Part shown: in pieces, positions 4,095 to 60,410 of the stretch
Numbering within the stretch: position 1 is the stretch's first letter
Layout: each line of letters begins with the position of its first letter
Source of the DNA: Liolophura sinensis
Lineage: Eukaryota; Mollusca; Polyplacophora; Chitonida; Chitonidae
Assembly: GCF_032854445.1 (NCBI RefSeq)
Contig: NC_088302.1
Coordinates: forward strand, 41,792,191-41,856,190
Direction: 5' to 3'
Length of the DNA stretch: 64,000 nucleotides
Notes under the pieces: model-generated
What the model was told of the DNA's origin: nothing
The model's database searches: none
Seen by the model: the letters and a program-made list of their open reading frames with translations, nothing else
Translations under genes and position numbers: made by a program

Positions 4095-4265
4095 CTATAT
4101 CAAAAAAGAATGTCAGCAAATCTTAAGGTAGGCGTTTTAGCGTACATTCATACGCCAATCGTCAACTAAAATAAAAATAAAAAAACAAGACCAATTTCCA
4201 ATGCAGCGTACCAGTATAGCATAAACCACCAGAAAATAGGATGGATATTCGATACATGTAAAACC

Positions 4266-31041: not shown

Positions 31042-33919
31042 CTAATCTTCAAATTCCTTCCTTTCCAATTCTTTTATTTTCCCGGCAATGTTATCATAAT
31101 ACTTTAAATGTATCAATAATTTCCTTGCTTCTGAGATGTCCCCTTTGTCAAAAGCCATGGATATATCAGTTGTAAGTCTTTGTAAGACTTGCTGATTGCG
31201 TTTCCTGATTGCATTGACTTTCTCCATGGAATCTGTTTCTGCCAGATCTTCGTTAATCTCCATGATTTCCATGAGGAAGTCTGGATCCAGATTTGTGTTA
31301 TCTGTTGTCTCATCAATCGGATCTCCGCTAAGCTCTAGCAGGTAAAGACCTCGCGATAATGGCTTGATCAGTGTTGTGTATGCCTTGTTCACTTGGCTGG
31401 ACTGATCAGCCGAATACTGCTGCTCTGTCTGCAAAACATAGACAAATACACCAAGTTACATGAATGTACTGACCGGTAGTGAAAACATTAATCACCTGCA
31501 CAAACTTCCCGATACACAATAGATGAGTGTGTCTGTGTAGGAGATGTGTGGCAGAGGTGAACTTTTCTAGTCTGACAACTATTTCAAAGTGTTTTTTCCA
31601 GTTCAGCAAAACATGTATATAGGTTATCATAATGACAAAATCTCTGGAAACACTACTTCTTTATACATTTATTTATTTATTTGGTGTTTTATGGCGCACT
31701 CAAGAATATTTCATTTATACAATGATGACTGGTATTATGATGGGGGGAAATACTTTGTTATATAGACTAAAACATTGTTACATTGTAATTTTTTTACACC
31801 ACAATCTAAATATTTCTAAACATGCTAAAAAAACTATCTGTTACATTATCTACTGGTTTAGTATAATTTTGCATTACCAAGAATTAGCTAGCAATACAAG
31901 GGAGATAACTTGGCAGTGTACATTTAGATAACAAATATTAATCACTAAAATAAATTGCCTACAGCAGAAAAAAAAAATGCTAGTGTCTAGGTTGAAAAAA
32001 AAAGTCCTTTCAATGTAGCACAAGTAAATCTGCAACTGTTTGATTTGGTATCAGAACAAGTTGTCCTAATATTAAGATATACTGGTAGAATACTAGAGTA
32101 CATACATGTACCGACAGCTAATATCTCCCGATACGTTCTGGATAAAAATGCCTTCCCTAGAGTTCCCTCGAGTTCATTTACCTGTGCTCTCTGAAGTTGA
32201 AGACAATTTATAGAGTCAGAGGCTATAAGCTGCTCTAATTCTTTCTTCACAAAATTGGCAGCCTGTGGTAAACTCATGCACATTCTGGCATGTCAGTGCA
32301 CTATTGGATCTATTGAGCCAAACATCTTTGGCAACTCAGCTAGGCAAATTAAAGAGTAGCACAAGATAGATGATCTCATCTTAGGTAGAGCTCAACCCCA
32401 GCCCTATTTAACTGCATGGCAAAAATGTCACTGGCTTTTACAGTACAATGTCGTTCTTATATCTGGTATACACTGATGCCCTCTCATCTAATGTGTAGAC
32501 ATACCAAAGCCTATGATAATACATTACTAGGCTAAACCATATTTGCAATGTTATCCAGCTGTTAAAATATTTGAATCGAACATGTCTACACATCAGATGA
32601 CATAGGAGTCATCTAGATGACATTCAACGTAACACTGAGTCCATCGCCACCTCTCAAACAAATCGCCACATATCAGCACACTCCAACTCGATGGAGCCGA
32701 TCTCAATGAGATCACGGCACCCAAACTTACCTGCACTAAATATACAAGCTCTTTTTTATGCCTTTTTGGATTGAAGTTGTTCTTGCAGACGGTGATTGAA
32801 ATATAATCATGTTCTTGAGGATTTCAATACCAAAACTAAGTTGCATTTCAATCCCGGAAGTAGGCCACCTGACACTTCAAAATAGCTGTCAATGGCGAGG
32901 TACTTGGTACCGCCGAAGTTCTTGCAGTCAATGTGACCACCATGCGCTGAGTTAATTAGTTTCGTTGGTGAGGATCGTAACTTAAAGGATATTATTAGAG
33001 ATTCCACCATAAAATTACATATAAATAAGCAGAGTAGGTGAGCTAGATTGCCATTAGTGGGAAGGAGGTAGGAGTTGGAAATCTGTGTTTTCTGGAGAGG
33101 TGTTGATGAACTCAGTGTTACAATGCATGTCAGAATTTTAAAATAGCACACTGTGTCCATCTAAATGGACTGAGGAAAGTAGTATAGGGGCTAACAAACA
33201 TAAAGTCGGGTTGGGGTTGTAAATGTTGGGGTCATTTAGCTTTTCCTCTTAGAATTAAAAAAAACATGCGACCGAGCGCTACATAAGGTCGCTTGAGCAG
33301 TTCAAAAAGGGAGCTGAGTGTGGACTATGAAACAACCAGACGATGAAACAATAAACCCAAGACAACCCTGGGTTATTGACACTCGCTGTCATACAGTATA
33401 TCTCACCTCTGACTTTTGAGTAAATTTATCAGGATGAAGTTGGCGTTGTAAATCTTTAAATTTTTGAGACAAACTTTCTTCATTCAAGTTAAAGCTTTTT
33501 TCCAGATTGAACAACTGAAAGTGATCCATGTTAGGTCTTGGTGCCATTATCACTCCACATTTGCAGAAGAAAATCTCATCACTGGGGTGTATTGTATTTC
33601 CACATTTCCAACATGATGGGCTAGATGACGCTGCGTCGCTATGTATATCTGCAGCAGATGACAACCCTGGCGTCATGGGACCAGAGAGAAACACTTCTGC
33701 AGCAGACCACAAAGGAGAGTTCAAACGCTCAGGTCTGCGTCTAGTTACAGTCAGACTGTTTGAGAATGAGTTATTTATTCTTTGTCCCCAAGACGCAATG
33801 CATGCTGCTGAAATCCGTTTTCTTGGTATTGGTGAACTCCCTAGTCGATCGAATACTGTCACAAAACCTTCAACCCTCAGCATCGTTTGACATCCCTTGA
33901 TCACCTTGGGCGCCGCCAT
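31042..33919 (-). CDS. HSCB: Iron-sulfur cluster co-chaperone HscB, mitochondrial, 2 exons, 299 aa
   Basis: Exon 1 is 33919-33407 (171 codons, donor GAG|GTGAGA) and exon 2 is 31428-31042 (acceptor TTGCAG, 128 codons plus stop). HscB is the J-protein that brings the ISCU scaffold to the mitochondrial Hsp70 for Fe-S cluster transfer. The sequence shows, in order, a basic presumed targeting leader, a CWKCG...CKCG zinc-binding pair, and a J domain with the HPD motif (QLHPDKFTQKSE). The NKAYTTLIKPLSRGLYLLEL helix and the C-terminal domain (FLMEIMEINEDLAE, then LLIHLKYYDNIAGKIKELE) follow. The start at 33919 (MAAPKVIKG) has A at -3 and G at +4. A later Met (MLRVEG) is possible. The leader before the zinc site is longer than in vertebrate HSCB. 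The single intron holds a SINE fragment, a MITE and a possible alternative first exon. Confidence 0.93.
31660..31750 (-). repeat. SINE family 1, tail and core only
   Basis: Complement of the A/T tail followed by 'ttggtgttttatggcgcact' and 'caagaatatttc'. It stops after about 90 bp, in the HSCB intron. Confidence 0.75.
32182..32283 (-). other. Possible alternative first exon in the HSCB intron
   Basis: A 34-codon open stretch begins with ATG at 32283 (or 32277) and includes FVKKELEQLIASDSINCLQL. It ends in CAG followed by a donor-like GTAAAT at 32181. Its phase 0 end would join the phase 0 start of HSCB exon 2 and give a J-domain-less product. No outside evidence; it may be chance. Confidence 0.3.
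32600..33175. mobile_element. MITE of about 570 bp with inverted termini (copy 1)
   Basis: Homologous in the same orientation to 61630-62215. Shared blocks include 'cccaaacttacctgcac', 'cttttttatgcctttttgga' and 'agtcaatgtgaccacca'. The ends are inverted copies of each other (caacgtaacactgagtccat and actcagtgttacaatgcatg). It lies in the HSCB intron and encodes no transposase. Confidence 0.8.
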
Positions 33920-35677
33920 TTTTGAAGTCACGTGATAATTTCGTTATCGTTTATTTTTGCTTTGCAAAAGCCGTGATTCGGTCCGGTTACTAATAGAACC
34001 TCTTTGCGGCGCAAAAAGAATTTATTCTAACAAAAACTACAGGACTAAAACTCTCAAACAATGCCAAAACAATTTTTTGAAATCGAAAGTCACGCAAATT
34101 TTCGCGAGAATCCAATAGGGGGCGCTGTACAACCCTTTAGGCGGCGTGTTTGGTAAGTGACAATAAATTTTATAGATTGAGAACAGAGAATATCCATCCC
34201 TGTTTCGTGAATAATTTTGTTCTGCAACATGTGCTTTACAAGCCGAAACATGTCTTGTTGCTGCCATTATTACAACATCTTAGTGAAACGTAAGTTAGTG
34301 AAACATTTCAAATGTTGATCTGTTGACTGTTGTGCTGTTGTTGTTGCTGTACCGGTACAGATTATTGTCTGGGATAGTTACCCAACTTTCATTTTTTGAC
34401 TATGACAAAACTATTTTTCGAGGATACCTAAATACTGAAGCCATAAATTGTTTGCTCCGTAATGCTGGCTGCAATCGTATATGTTGGATATTCTTAAAAC
34501 GCCTAGGTCTAAAAACACCAGTGAAATAAATAAACAAAATTAAATGCAAAATTTTTCTTGAATGTCATCGTCTGTGATCTAACAGTTAGGTTACGGTGTT
34601 ACAGCACGTCATATATCCCAGCACTTAATGCCTTTCAGCTACTTGAAATAGCACTATCACTTATGAGTGTGTGGTCTTAAAGTGTCGAATCATTAGTCCG
34701 AGGGTCCCCCTAAATTCATATAAAATGTGGAGGGGCCTCTGTGACTGAGTTGGTTAACGCGCTAGCACAGCATAATGACCCAGAAGACTCTCACCAATGT
34801 GGTCGCTGTGAGTTCAAGTCCAGCTCTTGCTGGCTTCCTCTCAGGTCGTAAGTGGGAAGGCCTTGCAGCAACCTGCAGATGGTTGTGGGTTTCCACCGGA
34901 CTCTGCCCGGTTTCCTCCCATCATAATGCTGGCGGCCGTCATTTAAGTGAAATATTCTTGAGTACAGCATAAAACACCAATCAAATAAATAAATAAATAA
35001 ATAAATAAATATAAAATGTGGATCAAATTGCTGCATTTTTGTCTCTGCTGATCCTAGGCTAAGTTGACAGTAACTGTCATGGCTACATATGTTTTTAACA
35101 TGTGTTACCATTGTAGTTATTATCAGTTATGATCTGCTTAATCTTTGTGCGAGCAGTCCTAAGTAGAATGTCATTTCAGACTTCACCAGTGGAAGTTAAT
35201 TTGTAGGCTACCAAACTTTATATGTGTTATCGGTTGTGTTAACATGTGAAAGGATTGTATGTAAAATATATGATAGACCCAGTTGTGGAGGAAATTTGGC
35301 TGGGTACCAGTATGTCTTGTAATTTGTGCTGTGTTTTGTAGATACTTAAAGTACTTTTTGAGTAGTTATAAATAGTTTCTTGAATGGTTAGATCATCTGA
35401 TTTACCAGCTGGCTGCCAAAGATTTCTCAATTTACCTTCAAAATATGCCATACAGAACCACAAATTTACACTTATATCAAGTTTTTTTATTTTTTTTTTA
35501 TTTTATGTTTTTTTTAAAATTAGGCATACTTATGTAGTTGTGACAGGCAATATCTAACTTAGAAAAGCAGTTGTGATGTTTAAAACTTAATATTATCCTT
35601 TTTTTTCATAAGTGAATTGATCTTGACTTCCTTACAACTGATTCAACGTCAATGTCAAGTGGGAGTCAGAATTCAAG
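33920..35677. promoter_or_regulatory. Head-to-head intergenic region between HSCB and LSM6
   Basis: The two divergent genes are separated by about 1.76 kb. The HSCB-proximal part has several CpGs (cgttatcg, ttcggtccgg, ttgcggcgcaaa) unlike the surrounding AT-rich DNA. It probably carries the HSCB start region and perhaps a non-coding first exon of LSM6. A full-length SINE interrupts it at 34731-35011. No TATA box stands out. Confidence 0.45.
34731..35011 (+). repeat. SINE family 1, best-preserved copy
   Basis: Complete from the head (ggggcctctgtgactgagttggttaacgcg) through the B box (GTTCAAGTCC), the body and an (AAAT)n tail. It serves as the reference for the family. Confidence 0.92.
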
Positions 35678-38600
35678 ATGAGCCGTAAGACTCCAAGTGA
35701 TTTTCTCAAGCAGATCATTGGCCGTCCTGTTGTGGTGAAACTAAACTCAGGCGTTGACTACAGAGGTAACTCTAACATGGCTAAAGACTTACAATTCATT
35801 AGATTCAGATTATTATCTCTATACAGTACGCTGATATGGTACATATTAAGTTGATCCTTACTGAACAGGGGCATTTGATTATGATTTATGAGTATTGGTA
35901 AGTAATGAAATAACCTTTGTAAGTGGGCATGATTTAGGCAGATTAAACTTCACTATAGTTTTCAATCAACTTTGCCACATGCCATTTCAGAAATGTAAGT
36001 TGACAGCTGACAGATCATGATCCATCAGGTTCCTTACTCTTTACTAGTTACTCTTACATAAATAAGGATGTAGTTGTATTTGATATTAGCTCTGAGATCA
36101 GATGGCCATGTTCCCAGCTTAGCGTCCACATTACCCGCTCTGGACCGTTACATTCAATAACCTGGAACTCGGTCCTGTCACCTGTGCTGTCATCAAAGTG
36201 CCAACGATGGACGCCACAAAAAAAAAGGTGTCCTGTGATGTTAAAGTAATTCTGAATTCATATCACTTCATTATGTGGGAATAATAAAGACCATAACGTC
36301 GTAAATAACACAAAAGTAACTGATCGGAACTTCAAATCATTTTCAAATCATGTGACTTGGTTGCTATGGTGGACTAGGCTGCTTTTCCCAAAATTAAGAT
36401 CATCTTTTTTTACAATATAATTGATTATGGTTCATTTCTGTTCATTATTAACACACATATTAAAGTAAAGACTCCCAAATTTGTCAGTCACCATTTTTAT
36501 GGTGTACATCTCATTAGTTTCCATCAAATTGTGCCACAAGATTATCTTTATCTGGAAGATGCCGAGTGCGACCGATTCTAATCAAACGTGGCCTCTAGTG
36601 AAGTTTGGCTCGCTGTTAATGTACCAGATACGTTTGTGTTAATTATAACGTTGTTGGTGTTCATTATTCACGAATAACTAGGTGATATGAAATAAGAATT
36701 ACTGAAGGATTGCAGGCAACTTGTTTTTGTAATGTACAGCTTTGACATGTTGAGGACAGCATACTCGAAAACAGTGAGTTGCAGGTTAGTGAATGGAAGA
36801 GTACAGGTTGTATTTTTGAAAGTTAAGCTAGGAAGAATAAAACAGATCTCAGATCTTATTTGATATATGCATACGTTTGAATTATATTTCAAGTATTTAA
36901 AGTTTTGTATTGCATTATCTTATTGTCTGATTTTTCATTGTAGTACTTGTAGGCTCTTGCCTGTCAATCACAGTGACAAAAGAGGTGCAGGATCAAACCC
37001 CGCCTTAGACAGGGAATTTGTAGATTCCTGGCTCTCACTGCCTCTGGGGCCTTTGTGACAAGTAGTTGTAGCCGTTTTGCTCAGGTGAAAGTTGATGGCA
37101 GACCTCTTGTCTTCCACCATTAAACGTGACTGTCATTGTTCAAGTAGCACTCAAATAAATAAATATTGTCTGACTATCTTTTCTAGGTGTATTGGCCTGT
37201 TTAGATGGGTATATGAACATAGCCCTGGAACAGACAGAAGAATATGTCAATGGTCAGCTGAAAAACAAATATGGAGATGCCTTTATCAGAGGAAATAACG
37301 GTGAGTCACCAAATGTATATATGTACACTTTGATAAAGTATCCCTTAGGAAATATAAAAAGCATAACTTTTTATTTTTAGCTCATGTAGCTTATGTGGCA
37401 CTCTGAGAGTTGGTGTTAAACAAAGTGTTAGGGATTGTATCTCAAAAAGTACTGTTGGGACTTCCGTGGACGAGGGGGGTTAACAAGCCAGCGCTGAGCA
37501 ATGACCCAGGAACCTCTCACCATTGCAGTCTCAGTGAGTTCAAGTCCAGCTCATGTTGGCTCCCTCTCCAGCCATAAGTGGGAAGGTCTATCGGCAACGT
37601 GTGGATGGTCGTGAGTTTCCCGGTTTCCCCCCACAGTAATGCTGGCCGCCATGTATAAGTGAAATATTCTTGAGTGTGGTGTAAAATCAAATAAAAAGTA
37701 CTGCCTGTACGCAAATCAGGGTTTGAATACATGTAGAGCACAAAATACACAGGGGGGATATTCCATCGTTGATTTGGAGCGTCCACCTTGAAGTAGGGAG
37801 ACCCGGGATGAAACCTGAGTCGGGTCATACCAAAGACTTCAAAATGGTACTTGTTGCTGCCTCACTTGGCACTCAGAGGTTAGAGCAAGGAAACATGGCT
37901 GGCCCGATGTCAGTATAATGTGACTGGGTGGGCACTTTGGTAGCATGGACTCGCCCTGCCACAAGACACAGCATATACACCCTAATGACTCCTCGTCGCA
38001 CTGGCCCAGATGGCTCAGTTTGTAGAGCGTCTGCTTCAGGGGTGGTAGATCCAGGGTTAATCTTGGGTTAGGTCACACCTAAGACCTTGAAAGAGCAAGT
38101 TGTAGTTTCATTTCTTGGCATTCAGCTTTAAGGGGATAGTACGACTGGTTGACCCTTATCAGTATAATGGCTCGGGTGGGGCAGCTTACTTTGCCTGCTG
38201 TATTAAAGTCATCTTAGTGAAGCAGCACTGGATAAAAGAGAGGTGGAAATCTGTCTTGCAGCAAGAAGACACATTACATGCACTCCAAGGACTCCATCAT
38301 CCTATGACTGAGAAATTATTTAAGTGCGATGTTAAAGCCCAAGCACTCACTCACTCCTCGTCACAGGACTGAAAAGTTGTTAAGTATGACGTTAACCCCT
38401 CAAGCATTCATTCGTTCTTTCTATCGCTGATTTTGTATTTGCATATTAAATTCCATAAATTACCAAATTCCTGAGTTGTTGAATTGTGTTAGAATCATTA
38501 TTAAAGCAAAACATGAGGGGTGGTATCTTAAAAAAGTACTGCATGTATTGACCTGAAGTTTTGCATGCACATAAAGCACAATAACACAAGGAGGATGTTC

Positions 38601-42329: not shown

Positions 42330-43060
42330 ATGATGTCACAGTCAAGATATCACACAGGTCATGCTTCTCTTATTCACAGTGTGCTCTTGTGAGCCTGCTG
42401 TCAAGAGAGTCAACTGAGCTTCCCTCTTGTGAATTGTTCAACATATCCATGGATTGATAGTTCAATCCAATGATACAACACGATCTGGATTTATTTATTT
42501 GATTGGTGTTTTACGCTGTACTCAGGAATATTTCACTTATATGACAGCGGGAGGAAACCGGGCACAGCCTGGAGGAAACCCACGACCATCCGCAGGTTGC
42601 TGGCAGACCTTCCCACTTACGGCCGGAGCACGATCTGGAAGTCAGATACTTGTTATTGTAGGTCACCAGCCATGTTGCATTCCTGAATGACAAAATCATT
42701 CAACTCGAATTTAGAGTGGTGAGGACAGAGGTCACCAAATCTTCTGTATCATTGCTGTCTGGCTGCGGACAGATCCCAGTCGCTCTTTGTCTGCGCTGGA
42801 GTCGTAAGGCAGTGGGCTTGGCTTTCTTCTACACATAAGTCAAGGGGTCCAGATAAATCAGAGACAACTTTATGATAAGTAGCCTCACTTGTATCACTTA
42901 TGTGATAAACAGCCTCACTTGTATCAGCTTTGTGATAAGCAACCTCACTTATATTGCTTACATAATAAGCAGCCTCACTGGTATGACACCGTGTTTCTTC
43001 TACTGCAGTGTCTGGTGTCCTCGACTGCCCAGTCATTACAAGCACAGTGACCTCCATCAT
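42330..43060 (-). pseudogene. Tail exon remnant of the second TIR gene, split by a SINE
   Basis: On the minus strand, 42465-42365 matches the end of the tail exon at 51920-51790 of the first TIR gene. It shares the codons for EGSSVD and the flanking 'cagtcaagatatcacacag'. Upstream, 43000-42749 is open and encodes a 12-residue repeat (DTSEAVYHI, DTSEATYHK), comparable in style to the SSHEAVLSA repeat of the first gene, then stops after SAARQQ. A minus-strand SINE family 1 copy (42489-42640) lies between the two halves. This is probably no longer a working exon. Confidence 0.6.
42489..42640 (-). repeat. SINE family 1, minus strand, inside the tail remnant
   Basis: Complement of the tail, core (gctgtactcaggaatatttc) and body up to 'gaccttcccacttacggccg'. 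The head is absent. Confidence 0.88.
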
Positions 43061-45602
43061 CGTGTTTCTTGTACTGCAATGTGTGGTGTCCTCAGTTGCC
43101 CAGTCATTACATGCACAGTGACCTCCGCCACCGTGTTTCTGGTATTGCAGTGCCTGGTGTCCTCAGTTGGCCAGTCATTACATGCACAGTGACCTCCATC
43201 ACCATGTTTCTTGTACTACAGTGCCTGGTGTCCTCGGTTGCCCAGTCATTACATGCACAGTGACCTCCATCACTGTGTTTCTTGTACTGCAATGTCTGGT
43301 GTCCTCAGTTGGCCAGTCATTACATGCACAGTGACCTCCGCCACCGTGTTTCTGGTATTGCTGTGCCTGGTGTCCTCAGTTGGCCAGTCATTACATGCAC
43401 AGTGACCTCCATCACCATGTTTCTTGTACTACAGTGCCTGGTGTCCTCGGTTGCCCAGTCATTACATGCACAGTGACCTCCATCACTGTGTTTCTTGTAC
43501 TGCAATGTCTGGTGTCCTCAGTTGCCCAGTCATTACATGCACAGTGACCTCCGCCACCATGTTTTTGGTATTGCAATGCCTGGTGTCCTCAGTTGGCCAG
43601 TCATTACATGCACAGTGACCTCCGTCACCACGGTTCTTGTACTGCAGTGTCTGGTGTCCTCAGTTGCCCAGTCATTACATGCACAGTGGCCTCTGTCACC
43701 GTGTTTCTTGTACCGCAGTGTCTGGTGTCCTCAGTTGCCCAGTCATTACATGCACAGTGACCTCTGTCACCGTGTTTCTGGTATTGCTGTGCCTGGTGTC
43801 CTCAGTTGGCCAGTCATTACATGCACAGTGACCTCCATCACCGTGTTTCTGGTATTGCAGTGCCTGGTGTCCTCAGTTGCCCAGTCATTACATACACAGT
43901 GGCCTCTGTCACCGTGTTTCTTGTACTACAATGTGTGGTGTCCTCAGTTGGCCAGTCATTACATACACAGCGGCCTCCATCACCGTGTTTCTTGTACTGC
44001 AATGTGTGGTGTCCTCAGTTGCCCAGTCATTACATGCACAGTGACCTCCATCACTGTGTTTCTTGTACTGCAATGTCTGGTGTCCTCAGTTGCCCAGTCA
44101 TTACATGCACAGTGACCTCCGCCACCGTGTTTCTGGTATTGCTGTGCCTGGTGTCCTCAGTTGGCCAGTCATTACATGCACAGTGACCTCCATCACCATG
44201 TTTCTTGTACTACAGTGCCTGGTGTCCTCGGTTGCCCAGTCAGTACATGCACAGTGACCTCCATCACTGTGTTTCTTGTACTGCAATGTCTGGTGTCCTC
44301 AGTTGGCCAGTCATTACATGCACAGTGACCTCCGCCACCGTGTTTTTGGTATTGCAATGCCTGGTGTCCTCAGTTGGCCAGTCATTACATGCACAGTGAC
44401 CTCCATCACTGTGTTTCTTGTACTGCAATGTCTGGTGTCCTCAGTTGCCCAGTCATTACATGCACAGTGACCTCCATCACTGTGTTTCTTGTACTGCAAT
44501 GTCTGGTGTCCTCAGTTGGCCAGTCATTACATGCACAGTGACCTCCCGCCACCGTGTTTTTGGTATTGCAATGCCTGGTGTCCTCAGTTGGCCAGTCATT
44601 ACATGCACAGTGACCTCCGTCACCACGGTTCTTGTACTGCAGTGTCTGGTGTCCTCAGTTGCCCAGTCATTACATGCACAGTGGCGCCTGTCACCGTGTT
44701 TCTTGTACCGCAGTGTCTGGTGTCCTCAGTTGCCCAGTCATTACATGCACAGTGACCTCCATCACCGTGTTTCTTGTACTGTACTGCCTCATGTCCTCAG
44801 TTGGCCAGTCATTACATACACAGTGGCCTCCGTCACTGTGTTTCTTGTACTGCAATGTGTGGTGTCCTCAGTTGCCCAGTCATTACATGCACAGTGACCT
44901 CTGTCACCGTGTTTCTTGTACCGCAGTGTCTGGTGTCCTCAGTTGCCCAGTCATTTCATGCACAGTGACCTCCGCCACCGTTTTTCTGGTATTGCAGTGC
45001 CTGGTGTCCTCAGTTGGCCAGTCATTACATGCACAGTGACCTCCATCACCGTGTTTCTTGTGCTGTACTGCCTGGTGTCCTCAGTTGCCCTGTCATTACA
45101 TGCACAGTGACCTCCATCACCGTGTTTCTTGTACCGCAGTGTCTGGTGTCCTCAGTTGCCCAGTCATTACATGCACAGTGACCTCCGCCACCGTGTTTCT
45201 GGTACTGCAATGTGTGGTGTCCTCAGTTGCCTAGTCATTACATGCACAGTGACCTCCATCACCGTGTTTCTTGTATCGCAGTGTCTGGTGTCCTCAGTTG
45301 CCCAGTCATTACATGCACAGTGACCTCCGCCACCGTTTTTCTGGTATTGCAGTGCCTGGTGTCCTCAGTTGCCCAGTCATTACATGCACAGTGACCTCCA
45401 TCACCGTGTTTCTTGTACCGCAGTGTCTGGTGTCCTCGACTGCCCAGTCATTACATGCACAGTGACCTCCGCCACCGTTTTTCTGGTACTGCAGTGCCTG
45501 GTGTCCTCAGTTGCCCAGTCATTACATGCACAGTGACCTCCGCCACCGTGTTTCTGGTATTGCAGTGTCTGGTGTCCTCAGCCATTACATGCACATTGCA
45601 TG
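43000..45602. repeat. 71-bp satellite array, about 36 copies
   Basis: Unit contains 'tggtgtcctcagttgcccag', 'tcattacatgcacagtgacc' and 'gtgtttcttgtactgcaatg'. Spacing is 71 bp (for example 43084 to 43155). Units fall into a few recurring variants (ggcc/gccc, ttgtactgc/ggtattgc), and blocks of three units (213 bp) recur nearly unchanged, as in the stretches around 43107-43292 and 43320-43505. Since 71 is not a multiple of three, the many overlapping open frames are by-products. It ends about 25 bp from the stop codon of the second TIR gene. Confidence 0.98.
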
Positions 45603-45626: not shown

Positions 45627-46606
45627 TCATAAATCCTTCATTCTTCTTGTGATTGCCTCAAACCAACGCTTGTCTTCTTTCCACTTTTTGATATCCTGTT
45701 CCCTTTTCTTTTCATTTTCCACCTTAATATACCGTCTTTTCAAAACCATTTCTTTCATTCTTGAATAGTAAAACTCGTCTCTGGTGTGGAAGTAGTATGC
45801 ACACAAACACTGCAGTCCAAAAGGAACCTTGTATTTACCCTCACTTTTTGAATCCATGAAGTATGGTACTATGCGCCAATTCCTTTCTGGTTTCTGAATG
45901 GATTCCATTAGGCACTCTTCTTCTAGAAAGCAGCTGAGTTCACATTCGCAGAAAGTTTTGGAAATAAGGATGAAAACAAAAGTACAATGTTCCATTCCTT
46001 CTCTCAGGCAGCTGATTTGGCGATTAAAGGTGCTTGCCAGTTCCTCGTATAACAGAACCTGAATTGGGTCTTCAGTCATATGAAATTTTTCATCTGTTTC
46101 CAAGTGTTTTTTAACTTCTAAAGCCTTGTAAAGGTCATCCACACAGTGAAGCAGAAGAATATCATAACATGGAAAGCAGATTTCTGGAGGTACCATGTTA
46201 TCTGGGATATCTTCCTCTGACACCTTGGCAGAACTACTGGATCCAGACATTGCACTCTTAGGTGTAGACATTGCACGGTTGTAAGCAGAATTTGCATTGT
46301 TTAGTGTAGATATTTCTCTGTTAGCTGCAGGCAATGGACTGCTACATGCAGCCTCTGCATACGTGGGTGTAGACACTGCACTGTTTATTGCAGACACTGA
46401 ACTCTTGGGTGCAGCCACTGCAGTTTTAGCCACAGACATTGCATTATGCGTATTGTCATTATTGTGTACAGGCACTGCATTCCTGCTTGCAGGCATTTTA
46501 TTCCTTTTTGCAGACATTGCATTCCTGGTTGGGACTTCTGGTGTGGCTAAATCTCTAGTTGACAAGTAACTTCCTTTGCCATTTTTTGGTGTAGCAAGGA
46601 ATCTGC
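45627..46606 (-). CDS. Second TICAM-like TIR-domain gene, TIR exon, apparently truncated
   Basis: One exon is identifiable, starting after an acceptor (TTTCCAG) at 46606 in the same phase as the TIR exon of the neighbouring gene and ending in a TGA at 45627. It encodes an N-terminal linker of loose 10-12 residue repeats (NAMSAKRNK, SAVSTPTY), then SEEDIPDNMVPPEI and a TIR domain. The TIR reads YDILLLHCVDD (box 1), VLLYEELASTF, CTFVFILISKTFCE and YYFHTRDEFYYSRM. A charged helix (EKKREQDIKKWKEDKRW) follows. Translation stops directly after it (RRMKDL), where the paralogue continues for about 500 more residues to its RHIM. A 71-bp satellite begins at that point. No upstream exons 1-2 were found, so it is either a partial gene or uses undetected 5' exons. 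Confidence 0.75.
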
Positions 46607-46935
46607 CTGGAAAGGTTTACAAAGATAAAAACTGTTCATAATTTCATCAAGGGAGAGCTAAATGAAGATAGACATCATTAACAAGAAAATTCCAAAATGT
46701 CTTATGCCAGATGACCACATAAATGTTTTTACAATACAAATTTGTATTCATCACACTTCATACATTTTGCTTCCAGTGATAAAGTTAGGGTACATGTAAC
46801 AACTGTGTCCTAAAGTTTGCCCTAAAAGTGGATTTCTTGAGGCAAATCAAAACTTGCATATGAGGCAACTGAGGCTTCAAATGCTTGGCCCACTAAGTGG
46901 GACCAACAGTCAAAATGCATGAGACCAGTTTGAGC

Positions 46936-51857: not shown

Positions 51858-53066
51858 CTACACGAGGTCAACTGAGCTTCCCTCTTCACAGGACAAATCC
51901 ACTGACATATCCCTGGGTTCATCGAATGAGAGAGCTTGTTGTGAATTGTCAGAAAACATGGATTCATTCATGCTACTAGATACATATAACATGCCTCCAT
52001 GAGAACTACCAGATGGTTCTTGGGAGCTAGCAGACAACACTACTTCATGAGAGCTAGCAGACAACGCAGCATCATGTGAACTGGCAGACAACACAGCTTC
52101 ATGAGAGCTGGCAGAAAGCACAGCTTCATGAGAGCTAGTGGACAACACACCTTCATGAGAGCTACCAGGCAACACAGTTTCATGAGAACCAAGAGAGAGA
52201 CATGGCGTTGCATTAGAGCTACTTGTACCAGGTAATACATCAGTTCGACCAGTTTCACGACTGTCACCATTTCCCTGTTTTATCATCTCCTTTGGAAGGT
52301 ATCGAGAAATTATAGACAATATTGCAGATTTATTTTCGCCACACTCATGTCCATCGAACTGTGACATACTTAATTCTGCACCGCTTTCTCCCACAGTATT
52401 CACACATGTTTCACCTGTTGAGCACACACCCTTTCCACTCAGAGATATAGCCTCTACCATATCTGTATGCTGTCCTCTTTTGACCCTATCACAGACCAAC
52501 ATACTTGAGCTTGACGTCTGTTTTCTCTTGTACATCCAGGTTTCACAGTGTAGTTTGGTATTTGCTTTTTCACCTGCTGTAGATCTCCCCACATCAGATT
52601 TATCACGCTGAGCATTAGCACATTCTGCCACACCAGGGGCAGGCTGCTTTCCCTCTCTGAATTCCACACCTAACCCTACCACACCCACCCCATCAGCATC
52701 CTCTCCATGGCCTTGAATCAACGGGCTAGCTGATAAGTCAGTATAGTCAGATGTGCAAGGAACATCACGCATCATGGACTCTGAGGCTGTGCTTGTTTTA
52801 ATGATGTCTGCTGATCGTTGTTGGTTATACTCATCTCTGAGCAATCAATGGTAGAAACTTTCACCCATGTGTCATCCTCCATTTGAGCGTCCAGAGTCTG
52901 GGGTCTATGCTCACCAGAAAAATCGCTCCTGTCATCACCTGCTTCATTACCCCTTCTGTCTTCCTCATCATATCTCCTCTCTTCCTCATCATATCTCCTC
53001 TCTTCCTCTTCATATCTTCTCTCTTCCTCATCTTCATCCAAACACCCGCCTCTCCCTGCCAAGTTT
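51858..53066 (-). CDS. Tail exons of the TIR-RHIM gene (acidic segment and SSHEAVLSA repeats)
   Basis: From 53066 the minus strand encodes RGGCLDEDEEERRYEEEERR and two more RRYDEEE-type repeats, then DDRSDF. That frame runs to a stop at 52772. A second, longer open frame (52844-51858) in another phase carries about eight copies of a nine-residue repeat (SSHEAVLSA) and ends EEGSSVDLV. They can be joined by a 134-bp intron with donor TCTG|GTGAGC (52915/52914) and acceptor GCCTCAG (52781/52780), which keeps frame. The acceptor's pyrimidine tract is poor, so a frameshift or separate isoforms remain possible. The last part is homologous to the tail remnant at 42330-42465 behind the second TIR exon, which supports its membership of the same gene type. 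Confidence 0.6.
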
Positions 53067-56000
53067 CTGACCTGATAACAGACAAAACCATTACAAAACC
53101 CAAGACAAAATCTATATGTAGTGTTGATGTGTATTTAAGGCTCGAAATAACAATATTTCCTGTAATAAACATTTTAGAAAATCGATTTTGCAATGATATA
53201 CATGCACAAATTAGTTCATCTTTTTTTCATGAGCATCTATTCTTTCTAATAGAGGTGATATGTCCCACATTAACAAGCAACACAGACCAATATAAGAGTT
53301 GCAATTAAAATCCACTCATTACATGATGTAATCATGTGAATACAAGCATCTGGCTATACATTACATTCTCGGTTAGTGCAAAGCAATTCATTGTTTACTG
53401 ATATGATCATAACAATAAACTCCTGAATTTTTCACTTCTGTAACGCCAGTCAGATTAATGGGTGGAGGAAACAGGAGTGTCCAGAGTAAACCACCCACAA
53501 TCTTCTTGACTCAACAGTTGGTCAAAGCTGATCGGTTGCAGTGAGAATGTTATGCTTTATTCTTTAAAGAATACTAGCTTTCAATGGCCTTATGAGGCAG
53601 TTTGAGGCCTCCATATGTTTTGGAATGCATTCTTTAACCCTAAGTCTAAATATCTGTGTACACCGTACTGTATCACACCAACTTATCATATAACTGTATT
53701 AGTGCTGTTAAAGGCAAACTGCAACGCTTTCAATTTTTGCAAAATGCTTGTCAACAAGCTTCTGCTGTTATTGTACTTAGCAAGTTTATGCTGCGAAAAT
53801 AATATTTCACTTATATGGCGGCGGCCAGCATTATAGTGGGTGGAAACTGGGCAGAGCCCAGGGGAAACCCACAACCATCCGCAGGTTGCTGACAGACCAT
53901 CCCACGTGTGGCTGGAGAGGAAGCCAGTATGAGCTGGACTTATAGCGACCGCATTGGTGAGAGACTCCTGGGTCCACACTGAAGACTACATATTATAAGG
54001 ACAATATTATACTTTAGAGAAACTTGACATTTTACAGTTTACCTGACCTAACTCACCGGTCATCCCACCCCTGGTGACCAGTCCGGTATTGCGCAACATC
54101 ATGTGGGATGTTCTGAACGGTGGACCTGTCTCCTAGGTGAACTGTGTCACAGTTCTGAATAATGATCACCTTCTTGGCCTCAGAATCGTGGTGGTGATGG
54201 TGGTGGTGGATTTCCCGCAGCACAGACCCGTGCTGCTCAGTTCTGCCTGTAAACTGCTGCTCTCTGCTCTCTGCCACTGACTCAGCTAACAAGGCTGAGC
54301 TTAGTGAGTCTGACTCAGATGTCCAGGATGAGCTCAGTGAGTCAGTTTTGCTCCTGGATCTCTGAGCATCCTCCTGCTCCACTCCACTGTGGCTCTGTTT
54401 TGTTGGAGTCGTTAATCCCAAGCTCTGCTGAATGTACGAGGCCGTAGAAATTTTGGATGTTGACCTGCTGCTGGAGGCATAGCCCGAGTCTGTGGCAGGG
54501 GGTGCTCCGTGCGCCCGTGTAGAGGATGACTCCCTTACTCTAAGACCATCCAGATGTTGCTTGACTGATGTCTCCTCAATCTGCTTGGTTGCATCCTCCT
54601 CCACACTGGAATCTAAGAGTGGATCTGTGCAGGAACCAGCATGATGAGTTACTGCTTGTTCGTCATGTTCATGGGCACTGCTGCTGACAGAAGCCTGAGG
54701 CAGTGATTGTGAAGCCTGAATCGGGACAGCCTGGCTGAGGCTAGCTTCATGTTGGTCAGACTCACGGAACCCTGTTTCACTGTAGGCAGTGCTGTTATCA
54801 GAACCTTGACGATAATCTTTTTTTGTGCGAGGGAATCTCTGGGGATCTGTGCTTGGCTCTTCCTCTCTGAGGTAGGTGACGGCATCAAATGACTGCTCTT
54901 TAAGCAGGCCTTCTTTTGTCTTCATTTCGTTGTTACTTGATCCAGTCTTTGGATCCGAGCATCTATCACCTGTATCAAACCTGGCAGAGCTGGTGCCCTG
55001 TCCAGTATCTTCATTCTTACTGGAGAGCTTGTGACCATCAAGACTAGTGTCAATCTGTTCTGTTGGCTCTGGTCCTCTCCTCAAGCCGGCTTGCTCCAGT
55101 GCCTTACCGTCAGACTGATGGTAAGGTGGGGGACGTGCTCCAAGGGTCACTGTGTGACCACCGTGCTGTTCCCCTACAGAATACCCTGCCATCTCTGCCA
55201 TGTTCCCTGGCATGGAGTGGCTCTCAGTGATACCTCCAAACCCCGGAGGCATGCCATATCCACCCCATGCCTGCTGGAGGTGTGGGTAACTCATGGTTAA
55301 GTGCATGGGTTGTCCATGGGGATATTGCGGATATCCATAAGGGTTTGTCCATGGGTATGGAAATGGAGGGAAATTCCCTAACTGTTCAGTGTTGGGATAT
55401 TTGCAAGAGTTGGCTGCTTGTGGCATGTTGTAACTGGAGGAAGTAATGGCCATATAACTAGGATTTACGGGCGCATTTTCTAAGCTTTTCTTAAGCTGTT
55501 GCAATTGCATTTCTTTCAAATCTTTTGCTTGCTTTTCACGCTGTTCTTCCTTTATTCTTTCCATAAGTAGCTCATGCCGTTTGTCTTCTTTCCAGTTTTT
55601 AATGCGCTTTAGCCTTTTCTTTTCCCTTTCATTCTTAATGTATCTCCTTTGCTCGATCATTTTGATCATGTTTGAAGAGTAGAACTCATCTCTCGTGTGG
55701 TAGCTAATGCCTTTCAAACAATTCAGTCCAGTCGGAATGCAGTAATCAGCAGACCTTTTGGGTTGAGTGAACAACGGAACAACACTCCATCTCTTGTTTG
55801 CGTCATGAATTGATTTAATCAGACACTCTTCTCCCAGAAAGCGGCTCAAGTCAGACTCACAGAAAGTCTTGGTGATAAGAATGAAGACAAAAGTGCAGTG
55901 ATCCATTCCCTCTTTCAAACAGCCGATCTGACGTCTAAATATCTGTACTAGTTCTTCGTATAACAGCACCTGTATTCTCTCCCCATTACTCAACAGGAGT

Positions 56001-59000
56001 TCTGTTTCCAAATGTTTCTTCACTTCCCAAGCATTCTCTGGTTCATCCTCGCTGTGAAGAAGGAGTATGTCGTAACAACGCAGTCCAACCTCAACAGGTA
56101 CCATGCTATCTGGGATATCATCATCTTCCTCCTCTGAGAGCTTCATGGTACTGACACACAGTTCTTCTGATGAACTGCTGGAAACAGCCACTGCATAACT
56201 AGTTGCTGAGCTGCTGGATACAGGCACTGAACTGCTGGATACAGACGCTGAGCTGCTGGATACAGTCTTTGAGCTACTGGATACAGATACCGCCTTGTTG
56301 GACAGTTTCTTGTCTTCATTACTATGTCCTGACTCACGATCAAGTAAAGCATTTACTGACACCTGTAACTGAAGGGATATATCATCTGGTAAGTCATCTT
56401 TGCCACACTTTGATTTCGCAGGAAAGTTATCTGAAAAGATAAAAATAACATTGTTTTATATAATTTCATGCTACGATAACAGAATGTGTAATAAGTTTAG
56501 TGCTGGCACACCAATCAAATAAATAAAATAAATAAATACTTCACAATGACGAACTAACAAATCTATGTTCATTTATAGACATGCCAGGAAAACTACAGCT
56601 GTCCTTTAAAAGAATTAAATACAATTAAAATATTTGATTTCTAAGATCTGCTTAAGATTTATTGATACTATTTATGGTGTTGAATGCAAATTACCTCCAT
56701 GAATAGTTATTAATGTTCATTAATGAGCATTTATACAACACTTCACAAGAATTTTTCTAATAAACTAAAGATAAATGTTAAAAGAAAAGACAACACTATA
56801 CCAAACGTTTATAGTCATTAAACTATAGTATAGTATATAGTATTCCACTGAAAGTTTAACAATCAAAACATGTTGTTTTTGTAATGCAGCACATCCAATA
56901 TGGAGTTCAAAGCAAGCAAAAAGCAAGCACAGATGGAGTCAATCGAGACTGACTCATGTCATCAGCATCTTTTTTATCTGTTTATCATTTAACCATATGA
57001 CAACGGGGTACAAGTACAGGCTCCAGTTGCTCTAACATGGCGCATTCCATGGCCTCAAAAGAATTCCTGATTAAAAGTTGAGTGACTTAGCAAGTCAGGG
57101 AAAAAAGTGTCTGTGGCCATTCATATCATTCTCCATCCATCCCCTATTCCAAAAAAAAATCAAGTTATATTATTTGCTGTTTTTCCTTTGAAGAAAGTGC
57201 CTATGCTGTCATCAAGGCTCAACAATGGTCCAGCACCTTAGAATGCACGTACTCTTATCTCAGGCTTTTGCAAAAAGGGAGGTAATTTTGATCTCTCCTC
57301 CCTGTACATGTATGCTTGTCAAATATTGGTTTCTGACAAATGACTCCTCCAAATAGTCTAATTTTGAAACAAAAAAAAATTGTGAGCAGGTCCACTTTAA
57401 TAAAGGAATTTTATCAATAAGTTTTACATATTTCATTCCGTGATTCTCAAAGGTTGGTGGTTTTGGTGCAACAGCTGCTCCAAATATTGTTATTGATGAA
57501 ATTCCTTGGGCAGATAAAATCCAAAAACCAGCTGGGTCAGTTAAAATTTGAAAACAGCTGGATCCTTGTACAAGTCTTGCATATTCAACCATTTCCTTCA
57601 TGATGACTGGTAATTGGTTTCCGTGCAGTAACCACTTCAAATATTGTCTGTATATGATAAAATTTTGTGTGCTGATTCAATTTGTGGTCTCTTTAAGATC
57701 AAATCTGAAAATCAGGCTATATAACCATGGGTTACGAGTGCATAAGGCTTGTACACTAAACATGAAATATAAATTTGGAGACTGTGCTGGTAAGGTACAG
57801 TTTTCAGTTGGGTATCTGTGATGATGATTTCATAACCTGTGAGAACATCTCCTCTTTGTTCGTTGTGAAAGTGTGAGAATGCTCAAAACCACACAGGGCT
57901 CAATGCTAACACTGATCCAGTGGTTCAATGGCAGTGGTATTTATGATCAAAATTTATTTAAAAACATGGCTTCTACATGTCCTATAGATGCTATATATTT
58001 AGATTAAAATAAAGTTTGATCATGTTTTCCTTTATTTAACTGAAGGACCAACTAATACCATGGACGAACAACTACATGTAATACCAAGGAGGGTCAACTA
58101 CATATAATATCAAGGATTGACTTCATGTTTGTAACATCAAAGACCAACTAAATGTAAAATCAAGGAGGACCAGCTACATGTAATATCAAGGAGGATCAGC
58201 TACATGTAATATCAAGGAGGACCAACTACATGTAATATCAAGGATTGATTTCATGTTTGTAATATCAAGGACCAACGAAATGTAAAATCATGGATGACCA
58301 GCTACATGTAATATCAAGGAAAACCAGCTACAAGTAATATAAAGGAGGACCAACTACATGTAATATCAAGGATTGACTTCATGTTCGTAATATCAAAAAG
58401 GACCAACTAAATGTAAAATCAAGGGGACCAGCTACATGTAATATTAGGGAGGACCAACTACATGTAATATCAAGGAGGACCAACTACATGTAAAATCAAG
58501 GATTGACCTTATGTTCGTAATATCAAGGAGGACCAGCTACACATAATATCAAGGAGGACCAACTACATGTAATATCAAGAATTAACCTTATGTTCGTAAT
58601 ATCAAAAAGGACAAACTACTTGTAAAATCATGGGGGACCAACTACATATAATATCAAGGGTTGACTTCATGTTCGTAACATCAAAAATGATCAATTAAAT
58701 ATAACATCAAGGAGGACCAGCTACATGTAATATAAAGGAGGACCAACTACATGTAATATCAAGGATTGACTTCATGTTCGTAATATCAAGGACGACCAGC
58801 TACATGTAATATCAAAGAGGACCAGTACATGTAATATCAAAGAGGACCAGTACATGTAATGTCAAGCAGGACCAGCTACATGTAACATCAAGGAATGACT
58901 TCATGTGCGTAATATCAAAAAGGACCAACTAAATGTAAAATCAAGGAGGACCAGCTACATGTAATATTAAGGAGGACCAGCTACATGTAATATCAAGGAG

Positions 59001-60410
59001 GACCAGCAACATGTAAAATCAAGGAGGACCAACTAAATGTAACATCAAGGGGGACCAGTTACATGTAATATCAAGTAGGACTAAGTTTGTGGTTAATTAT
59101 GGCCCTGACAAGTATCAGTAACTAACAGCACGGTAGAATAGCTCACACTTACCAGGTGGTGATCGTGATTGGGGCCTTGTGGCAGGGGGTGGTGCCTCAC
59201 AATGCCCTGCCCCACTGGGTACCTGATGAGCTGATGCTGTACTCTGCTGTGCATTGCTTGGAGTCTGTTGAGCTGGTGTAGTTCTGGGTGCAACACTGTA
59301 TGTGTTGGGTCTCACACAGCCTGTCTCAGGGGTGAAGGGAACAGCATCAGGGCTGACACACCCTGACAGGTCTCCAGCACTTGTCTCAATATGAAGAGTT
59401 AGGGGCTTGATGTCAGCTTCAGTCTTATCTGTCATGTAAAGAGTTTACACACATTTCTGATGGTGATCTAGTTATAACAGTCCAATATAATGCATAAATA
59501 AATAGTACATTAACAATACTTCCACACACAAACAATTAAGTGAATTATTCAAGATTGCAAACACCAAGCGAAATTGTCGCTTTACTCACGTCAACGCGCC
59601 TGATGTGTCTTTTCGACGTTCAAAATTTACATACGCTGTGCACATAGGTCTACTGCCTTACATATTGTAACTTCTGGTTACGATTAGCGGTACTTCAGTG
59701 ATTATCATCCAATGTTTTATATTTCCCTACATCTTCCCATTTTATCTTTCACCTCCTCATCTGCTTGCCCCTGTCTTGTATGAGAGAAGTGCCCGGACGT
59801 CCACAGTCTCGAATTGGCTGGTTGTGTCAAAGTATTCCAAGTGAAAGGAGATCAGAAACTGTAACATCTGTATTGCTGATTGCAGACATGATCGTACTGA
59901 AGTTTAAAATCGAGCACATGGGTCATACGGAAGACAGAAGAACAGTGAAAACAAATAAAACTCACCTCTTCTCCCAACTCCACGACTCTTTAGAGTCTGT
60001 TTGTTCTCATGGATGGTCATCATTTCTGACATGAGTATGAATATAAAATATGTTTTCAAGTACATAACTATTAGTATCTATAAGTACATGTAGATACACA
60101 CATACTGGTACAAAAGTAGCTTGGGTGTCAACCACATCATCACACATGTAAACTAAAGATTTAGAAAACTTGGGACTAATGGACATTGTCAACATCAGGT
60201 CAATATTTTCTCAATATGGTAATTCAAACAGTGCATGATTTCTAAAGGCTTTCCAAGCAAGTCTTTATGGTAATTTTATCACTTACCCATGTGGTCTTTC
60301 ATAGTGTTTTCCATCGAGGTTGTCTCCTGCCTTAAGTTGACCATGCTAAAGGTTGGAGATGCGTCTTCATCCACGCGACTAGTCAGTTTCTTTCTTCTGC
60401 TGTTGGACAT
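51858..60410 (-). CDS. TICAM/TRIF-like adaptor with TIR domain and C-terminal RHIM, multi-exon
   Basis: Exon 1 is 60410-60287 (MSNSRRKKLTS; donor GTAAGT), exon 2 is 59428-59153 (donor GTAAGT) and exon 3 is 56430-54057 (acceptor TTTTCAG, donor CCG|GTGAGT). Phases 1 and 1 join cleanly. If exon 3 is not spliced, a TGA within the donor ends a 925-residue protein. In order it has Pro/Thr/Gln-rich exon 2, Ser-rich repeats (about 180-225), a TIR (about 253-396: YDILLLHSEDE, CTFVFILITKTFCE, YHTRDEFYSSNM), a charged helix (to about 450), a Pro/Tyr/Gly segment (FPPFPYPWTNPYGYPQYP), seven His, and a RHIM-like core VIIIQNCDTVHLGDRSTV near 888-905. Splicing on to exon 4 (from 53066) adds an acidic tail (DEDEEERRYEEEERRY). 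A proposed further intron (52914-52781) leads into a Ser/His/Glu-repeat exon ending at 51858, for about 1282 residues. TIR adaptors of this kind link Toll-like receptors to RIP kinases through the RHIM. Confidence 0.85.
53783..53985 (-). repeat. SINE family 1, minus strand, in the intron after exon 3
   Basis: Begins at 'gctgcgaaaataatatttca' (diverged core) and runs to 'gagctggacttatagcgacc'. The A/T tail is missing. Confidence 0.8.
56431..58040. other. Intron 2 of the TIR-RHIM gene, left part
   Basis: A SINE tail fragment (acaccaatcaaataaataaa) lies at about 56507-56537. A minus-strand open stretch of about 126 codons at 57640-57260 has no ATG at its start, no family resemblance and no splice support, so I do not call it. 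Confidence 0.45.
58045..59085. repeat. 26-bp minisatellite with two unit types, about 39 copies
   Basis: The main unit is close to 'gaccaactacatgtaatatc' plus 'aaggag'. A second unit, 'attgacttcatgttcgtaat' plus 'atcaa', recurs at intervals (near 58107, 58244, 58373, 58502, 58655 and 58756). The array sits in intron 2 of the TIR-RHIM gene and ends about 70 bp from exon 2. Confidence 0.93.

What the first reader, a model, noticed from the sequence alone, without database searches (positions are those of the whole stretch)
51858..60410. A TIR adaptor with a RHIM-like amyloid motif at its C-terminus
Seen: exons that join in phase put a TICAM-like TIR (YDILLLHSEDE) and, near the end, VIIIQNCDTVHLGDRSTV in one protein. 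Known: RHIMs of RIPK1, RIPK3, ZBP1 and TRIF share a hydrophobic run, an N-C-type turn and a core of V/I-Q-V/I/L-G; here the core reads V-H-L-G, with His for Gln. Inference: this molluscan protein can nucleate amyloid-like signalling downstream of Toll-type receptors, and it departs from vertebrate TRIF in its Pro/Tyr/Gly linker and acidic tail.
Basis: partly seen in the sequence, partly recalled or inferred. Interest (0 to 1): 0.75.

Follow-up and report, generated by a model that had tools for sequence, protein, structure and literature searches.

The report
Chiton TRIF-like adaptor, RHIM-like motif
A chiton (a mollusc) appears to carry a relative of the vertebrate immune adaptor TRIF, with a short stretch resembling the amyloid-forming 'cryptic RHIM' of insects, although TRIF-type adaptors are usually said to exist only in chordates.

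Summary
The gene lies on the minus strand (60410 to 52772 or 51858) of the chiton Liolophura japonica, not a bivalve. One exon encodes a TIR, a basic helix, a Pro/Tyr/Gly linker and VIIIQNCDTVHLGDRSTV.

The TIR is TICAM-type: all 6 PDB matches (E up to 10) of the two-gene profile are TICAM1/2; human TICAM1's best hit in the genome is the tandem paralogue; a tree joins both genes to human TICAM1/2 (98/97).

The motif fails the strict RHIM tests (Pfam silent, His for Gln). Still, it is the protein's best RHIM-like site (15 of 5000 shuffles as good), and its VHLG core nearly matches VHIG of insect cryptic RHIMs that stain as amyloid (PMC9531809). Best reading: a TICAM-type adaptor with a cRHIM-like element.

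Weak points: no orthologue testable, paralogue lacks the motif, no RHIM partner found, structure models inconclusive. Several papers seen call TICAM chordate-specific.

The parts
60287..60410 (-). exon 1, proposed start ATG at 60410
   Evidence: reading frame, donor GTAAGT, phase
59966..60025 (-). exon 2
   Evidence: AG/GTGAGT borders, in phase
59153..59428 (-). exon 3, Pro/Ser/Thr-rich N-terminal part
   Evidence: AG/GTAAGT borders, in phase; residues 1-202 give only one insignificant Pfam hit, DUF4681, E 0.15
54057..56430 (-). exon 4: TIR, basic helix, linker and RHIM-like motif
   Evidence: 2374 nt without a stop in this frame, 33 and 65 stops in the others; acceptor TTTTCAG, donor GTGAGT
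55625..56104 (-). TICAM-type TIR domain (residues 263-422)
   Evidence: PDB matches to TICAM1/TICAM2, profile comparison, trees, human TICAM1 against the genome, which hits the paralogue
55487..55654 (-). basic helical extension with WKEDKR (human TICAM1 has MWRKEQDTR, TICAM2 has IWKETR)
   Evidence: letters; shared with the paralogue. The resemblance to the human helices is by eye: the aligner does not put the Trp in one column
55226..55486 (-). Pro/Tyr/Gly-rich linker
   Evidence: 49% P/G/Y/F/W/M, human TRIF linker 47%
54116..54169 (-). RHIM-like (cRHIM-like) motif VIIIQNCDTVHLGDRSTV
52915..53066 (-). exon 5, acidic tail; may instead continue to a stop ending at 52772
   Evidence: acceptor GTCAG, frame with the best codon score of three
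51858..52786 (-). possible exon 6 (start 52786 or 52810): Ser/His-rich C-terminal tail
   Evidence: open ORF, phase-compatible GT-AG intron; not proven
45627..46616 (-). tandem paralogue: same TIR (57% identical) and helix, ends after the helix, no motif
   Evidence: pN 0.265, pS 0.615 over 200 codons

Best explanation
The gene encodes a molluscan TICAM-type (TRIF/TRAM-related) TIR adaptor. Proposed mechanism: its TIR binds the TIR of an activated Toll-like receptor of this TLR-rich animal (inferred); the basic helix, the flexible Pro/Tyr/Gly linker and the long polar stretch let the downstream segment reach out (inferred); VIIIQNCDTVHLGDRSTV, a cryptic-RHIM-like beta segment, then stacks with itself or with the RHIM of a RIPK1- or IMD-like protein into an amyloid-type platform that turns on NF-kappaB or cell death (inferred, as for TRIF and insect IMD). 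The paralogue without the motif would be a TRAM-like bridge or a brake (inferred). Shown: gene structure up to exon 4, TICAM affinity of the TIR, motif sequence. Not shown: expression, receptor, amyloid, partner, output.
For: TIR: phmmer against 177,635 PDB sequences gives TICAM1 first (E 0.0068); 6 of 9 matches up to E 10 are TICAM1/2 and 3 are the unrelated SlmA. With the two-gene profile all 6 of 6 up to E 10 are TICAM1/2, best E 6e-4. HHalign P 7e-8 to the human TICAM pair; human MyD88, TIRAP, SARM1, TLR2, TLR3 (letters recalled), 16 chiton TLR TIRs, the neighbouring TIR and a shuffled control are all at 0.0046 or worse. Tree: both chiton genes with human TICAM1/2, 96/95 with 20 rows and 98/97 with 18 rows; grouping with MyD88 or TLR3 rejected, p-AU 0.006 and 0.004. 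Human TICAM1 against the whole genome: 3 matches, best the paralogue, E 0.044; none of the 109 PF01582 places is among them. Architecture TIR, basic helix, P/G/aromatic linker, motif as in human TRIF. Motif: best RHIM-like site of the protein, 15 of 5000 shuffles; strongest beta segment after residue 430. Core VHLG close to VHIG of insect cRHIMs; mosquito PGRP-LE and IMD with VHIG stain with ThT in cells (PMC9531809 passages). Oyster authors found TBK1, TRAF, IRF and RIP1 but no TRIF, and proposed a possible unknown adaptor (PMC4892480 passages).
Against: Pfam RHIM is silent; even with Gln put in, the motif stays under the cut-off. The pattern [IV]Q[ILV]GxxNx[MLI] has no match in the 1042-aa model. 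A noise ORF outscored the motif, so the motif alone could be chance. The paralogue lacks it. No other RHIM emerged from the genome by Pfam family or pattern, and no RIPK1 or IMD partner was identified. No TRIF-NTD hit and no pLxIS motif. The BB-loop Pro of human TICAM1 is absent in both chiton genes. Human TICAM1's hit is the paralogue, not this gene; human TICAM2 lists 45 places, led by ordinary TIRs, and neither chiton gene. Predicted structures are too poor to confirm the TIR fold. Linking the chiton genes with TIRAP is not rejected (p-AU 0.064), their branch is long, and treekit warned of long branches meeting.
Confidence: 0.52

Rival explanations
1. The TIR is TICAM-type, but the RHIM-like segment is a chance resemblance in a long, probably disordered tail; the protein signals by TIR assembly alone.
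For: Pfam silent; an unrelated ORF in the held loci scores higher; paralogue lacks it; a [VI][QH][VIL]G core alone appears in 1265 of 20000 shuffles of the part after residue 430.
Against: Best site in the protein (15 of 5000), downstream of TIR and linker as in TRIF, with the NC turn (N[CS]..[VI][QH][VIL]G in 6 of 20000 shuffles, a pattern chosen after seeing the motif) and the top beta propensity of the tail.
Confidence: 0.33
2. The TIR is not a TICAM orthologue but a divergent molluscan TIR that fell together with TICAM by long-branch attraction or convergence.
For: Long branch (3.28 and 3.16 changes per column); low identity (22% in HHalign); BB-loop Pro absent; human TICAM2 prefers ordinary TIRs of this genome; several papers seen restrict TICAM to chordates.
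Against: phmmer, profile, HHalign, tree and the reverse search with TICAM1 agree, and the TLR, MyD88, TIRAP and SARM1 TIRs tested do not score comparably; a similar Trp-Lys-Glu helix after the TIR, by eye.
Confidence: 0.12
3. A variant of the best explanation (it overlaps with it): a cross-pathway hybrid in which the TIR brings Toll receptors onto an IMD-type amyloid; the VHLG core reflects an IMD/PGRP-type cRHIM rather than a TRIF-type RHIM.
For: Core VHLG is nearer to insect VHIG than to vertebrate V/I-Q-V/I-G (PMC9531809 passages).
Against: No IMD with a cRHIM was identified here; insect flanks were not available for comparison.
Confidence: 0.15

Closest known systems
TICAM1/TRIF (vertebrates)
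   Same: TICAM-type TIR, basic helix with a similar Trp/Lys/Glu stretch, Pro/Gly/aromatic linker, RHIM-like segment downstream
   Different: no TRIF-NTD hit, no pLxIS, no BB-loop Pro, His for Gln in the core, 352 extra residues before the motif, acidic tail beyond it
TICAM2/TRAM (vertebrates)
   Same: the paralogue has TIR plus helix and no RHIM; profile match at E 0.39-0.43
   Different: reverse search with TICAM2 returns neither chiton gene; myristoylation not examined
bbtTICAM (amphioxus)
   Same: single TICAM-type adaptor outside vertebrates, reported to signal to NF-kappaB by binding RIP through its RHIM (PMC6043800 passages), although a Pfam and motif survey reports no conserved RHIM in Leptocardii (PMC9440496 passages)
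   Different: chordate; its paper was not held and its sequence was not compared
[quoted passage not shown]
   Same: core lacking Gln in some members; VHIG in mosquito PGRP-LE and IMD against VHLG here (PMC9531809 passages)
   Different: flanking residues were not available for comparison; that those proteins have no TIR is recalled
RIPK1/RIPK3 RHIM
   Same: RIPK3 VNIYNCSGVQVGD against IIIQNCDTVHLGD here (RIPK3 letters seen in PDB 7dac)
   Different: no Pfam domain in the TIR-motif exon, so no kinase there; His in the tetrad; Ser instead of Asn three after the Gly

Membership tests
TICAM (TRIF/TRAM) TIR adaptors | TIR nearer to TICAM1/2 than to TLR, MyD88, TIRAP or SARM1 TIRs | tested here: met
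   TIRAP not excluded by the AU test (p 0.064)
TICAM (TRIF/TRAM) TIR adaptors | reverse best match in the whole genome | tested here: inconclusive
   human TICAM1's best hit is the paralogue, this gene itself is not listed; human TICAM2's best hits are ordinary TIRs
TICAM (TRIF/TRAM) TIR adaptors | Pfam TIR/TIR_2 match | tested here: inconclusive
   no match, but human TICAM1 itself scores 23.6 against a cut-off of 28; human TICAM2 passes with 36.7
TICAM (TRIF/TRAM) TIR adaptors | BB-loop Pro (its importance for signalling is recalled) | tested here: not met
   alignment of 4 sequences; a functional residue, not taken as definition of the family
TRIF (TICAM1) proper | TRIF-NTD at the N-terminus | tested here: not met
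   residues 1-202 give no TRIF-NTD in Pfam; no positive control was run
TRIF (TICAM1) proper | pLxIS motif | tested here: not met
   no match in the 1042-aa model
RHIM (PF12721) | profile score of at least 20 bits | tested here: not met
   no match up to E 10; controls RIPK3 40, RIPK1 23.8, TRIF 43.9 bits
RHIM (PF12721) | core tetrad (V/I)-Q-(V/I/L/C)-G (PMC9444067 passages) | tested here: not met
   V-H-L-G
Cryptic RHIM (insect IMD pathway) | RHIM-like core without Gln, V-H-I-G in some known cases | tested here: met
   V-H-L-G; precedent in PMC9531809 and PMC9496462 passages
Cryptic RHIM (insect IMD pathway) | amyloid formation | not testable with these tools
   needs a fibril assay; only beta propensity computed
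Cryptic RHIM (insect IMD pathway) | conservation across species | not testable with these tools

The most novel reading that the evidence does not exclude
TICAM with a RHIM-type amyloid element predates chordates: the common ancestor of protostomes and deuterostomes already had a MyD88-independent TIR-to-amyloid route, and molluscs kept it in a form that Pfam does not see, with an IMD-like cryptic core.
Probability: 0.42. Interest if true: 0.82.

Novelty: new variant of a known kind. Interest (0 to 1): 0.63.

Why it matters
Passages seen here place TRIF/TRAM adaptors in chordates or vertebrates only (PMC6043800; PMC7075850; PMC9440496; PMC9334734; PMC4892480), while the oyster study finds the downstream parts (RIP1, TBK1, IRF) and raises the possibility of an unknown adaptor (PMC4892480). 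In the other direction, PMC3308963 cites TRIF and TRAM in cnidarians and reports one weak TRAM hit in Mytilus. This gene is a concrete candidate for the missing adaptor and makes the question testable. If it works as proposed, it would join the TLR route and an IMD-type amyloid element in one molecule. It also shows why Pfam-based surveys could miss such genes.

Tried and rejected
Rejected or unresolved: (a) The 71-bp minisatellite beside the paralogue as a relic of a RHIM-coding exon: one frame resembles the motif region, but at DNA level 630 of 1000 shuffles score as high. (b) Homology of the two genes' downstream tails: 734 of 1000 shuffles as high. (c) Another RHIM in the genome: PF12721 gave nothing at E 0.001 and 4 sub-threshold matches at E 10; translations of 5 weak loci (these 4 plus the second match) showed no RHIM context. 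The pattern search gave 4 matches against 4 for its reversed control; 3 of the 4 were read in context, the fourth having the same letters as one of them. (d) A RIPK1 or IMD partner: 40 Death-domain matches, 30 with loci of about 3 kb, plus 2 longer stretches, scanned for RHIM-like cores; nothing convincing. L040/L071 looks like FADD by eye. In one search the minus-strand loci were read in the wrong orientation, so its table is valid only for the plus-strand ones; one search repeated the motif scan in the right orientation. A recalled human RIPK1 kinase query gave 71 matches that I did not sort. (e) AlphaFold2 models of the TIR from 2 rows: mean pLDDT 50.2 and 44.5. Foldseek found nothing at E 0.001 or better for either (first model: TLR2 TIR on top at E 0.4; second: PII, CutA and S6 variants on top), and none of the 50 entries shown by VIA-align is a TIR. 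Inconclusive. (f) The neighbouring TIR 5.6 kb beyond the window is not TICAM-specific.
Full report
What is there. The window lies at G000:C8:41792191-41856190 of a 609-Mb assembly with 632 contigs. Three contig lengths and the contig number equal those published for the chiton Liolophura japonica (PMC11068029, passages; total length differs by 31 kb), so the animal is a mollusc of the class Polyplacophora. On the minus strand, four exons join in phase. Exon 4 (56430-54057) has no stop in one frame and 33 and 65 in the others; it encodes the TIR, a basic helix, a Pro/Tyr/Gly-rich linker, 352 mostly polar residues and VIIIQNCDTVHLGDRSTV at residues 908-925. Beyond it the acidic exon 5 either stops at 52772 or is spliced again into an ORF ending at 51858. 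The motif is therefore followed by 117 or about 380 residues and is not C-terminal.

The TIR is TICAM-type. Pfam gives no match, but human TICAM1 also scores below the TIR_2 cut-off and gives no PF01582 match. Against the PDB, the single sequence matches TICAM1 (E 0.0068) and TICAM2; 6 of 9 matches up to E 10 are TICAM and the other 3 are SlmA. A profile of this TIR and the paralogue matches only TICAM1 (best E 6e-4) and TICAM2 (best E 0.39), 6 of 6 up to E 10. HHalign of the chiton pair gives P 7e-8 to the TICAM pair, 1.7e-6 to TICAM1 and 3.4e-5 to TICAM2, against 0.0046 or worse for human MyD88, TIRAP, SARM1, TLR2 and TLR3 (letters recalled), 16 chiton TLR TIRs (of 109 PF01582 matches), the neighbouring TIR and a shuffle. 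A tree of 20 rows (10 of the 16 chiton TLR TIRs) and one of 18 rows (SARM1 and the neighbouring TIR left out) put the two chiton genes with human TICAM1/2 at 96/95 and 98/97. Joining them to MyD88 or TLR3 is rejected; joining them to TIRAP is not (p 0.064); branches are long. In the reverse direction, human TICAM1 against the whole genome gives 3 matches, the best being the tandem paralogue (E 0.044); this gene itself and the PF01582 places are not among them. Human TICAM2 gives 45 matches, led by places that also match PF01582, and neither chiton gene. Human TICAM1 letters outside the TIR were checked against PDB 8rlm: a helix with MWRKEQDTR follows the TIR, against IKNWKEDKR here and IWKETR in TICAM2. 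That likeness is by eye; the aligner does not stack the Trp.

The paralogue. At 46616-45627 a second gene has a TIR 57% identical over the 160-aa query, the same intron phase at its 5' border by eye, and ends after the helix. pN is 0.265 against pS 0.615 over 200 codons, as for protein-coding sequence under constraint. It lacks the linker and the motif, as TRAM does relative to TRIF; this can be read as division of labour or as a sign that the motif is dispensable. No convincing upstream exons like exons 1-3 were found for it, so it could also be incomplete.

The motif. Pfam RHIM does not score it. Controls: human RIPK3 fragment 40 bits, RIPK1 23.8, TRIF 43.9, TRIF with His for Gln 32.5, chiton motif with Gln for His 16.6, cut-off 20. 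A phmmer search of the motif region against the PDB gives nothing; the TRIF RHIM used the same way finds only itself and a designed protein, so that search has little power. My own matrix from four vertebrate RHIMs ranks it first in the protein (14.3 bits; the four, which are training data, score 41-46); 15 of 5000 shuffles of the protein reach it; it is first of 273 window ORFs; in 2934 ORFs of the fetched loci one noise ORF scores 18.9. It has the highest beta propensity after residue 430 but is only seventh in the list of hydrophobic windows. So the sequence alone does not prove a RHIM. What lifts it is context: a TICAM-type TIR, a TRIF-like linker (49% against 47% Pro/Gly/aromatic/Met), and a core V-H-L-G that follows insect cryptic RHIMs: mosquito PGRP-LE and IMD have V-H-I-G, described as a fly cRHIM core, and stain as amyloid in cells (PMC9531809, passages; also PMC9496462, passages). 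In vertebrates the natural tetrad variants tested in human RIPK3 all keep Gln (PMC12119088, passages), so His is untested in that setting.

How it may work. Shown: gene, TIR affinity, motif. Inferred: TLR-TIR recruits this TIR; the linker extends; the motif seeds an amyloid with itself or with a RIPK1/IMD-type partner and activates NF-kappaB or death.

What is known. Passages read say that TRIF homologues first appear in amphioxus (PMC6043800), that the TRIF-like TIR group is exclusively chordate (PMC7075850), and that TRIF and TRAM were not found in Aplysia or Sydney rock oyster (PMC9334734; PMC4892480). PMC3308963 did not find clear TRAM/TRIF orthologues in Mytilus but reports one weak TRAM hit, and cites TRIF and TRAM in cnidarians. 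PMC4346834 has a table comparing TICAM1/2 and other adaptors in oyster and other animals whose numbers I did not see. Searches (20 of 141 listed), 21, 63, 64 and 88 in the open PMC library listed no title or abstract start describing a molluscan TICAM with a RHIM; of the papers cited I saw passages (for PMC9440496 also the outline and abstract), none in full. Subscription papers are mostly not held, and the bbtTICAM and RHIM/HET-s papers were not held.

Verdict. TICAM-type adaptor in a chiton: about 0.85. Functional RHIM-like element in it: about 0.5 to 0.6. It fails the strict RHIM tests, so I do not file the motif as a RHIM; it may well work like one, in the manner of cryptic RHIMs.

Noticed in passing
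window 42987-45581: 71-bp minisatellite, 36.5 copies, directly downstream of the TICAM-like paralogue, with several long ORFs on the + strand.
   Followed up: partly
window 58053-59081: Degenerate minisatellite of about 26 bp in the intron between exons 3 and 4.
   Followed up: no
L069, G000:C8:41861773-41862015, + strand: A third TIR gene 5.6 kb beyond the window end, ordinary by Pfam (TIR_2 33.5 bits), on the opposite strand; a small TIR cluster.
   Followed up: partly
window 20574-21344 and 25062-25763, - strand: Two very similar rhodopsin-type GPCR exons (7tm_1, 65.5 and 69.3 bits); related-looking ORFs by eye at 3760-4122 and 22474-22701 (the latter without a Pfam hit).
   Followed up: partly
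window 31045-33943, - strand: HSCB iron-sulphur co-chaperone gene (HSCB_C 72 bits; tetracysteine motif 21.2 bits, below its cut-off of 26.2).
   Followed up: partly
window 35642-35851, + strand: First exon that looks like LSM6 by eye; Pfam gave nothing on the fragment.
   Followed up: no
window 54188-54208, - strand: Seven consecutive His codons (residues 895-901) just before the motif.
   Followed up: no
whole genome G000: At least 109 PF01582 TIR matches at E 0.01, many with open frames of over 800 aa, often in clusters on C13, C11, C12 and C10: it looks like a large TLR expansion.
   Followed up: no
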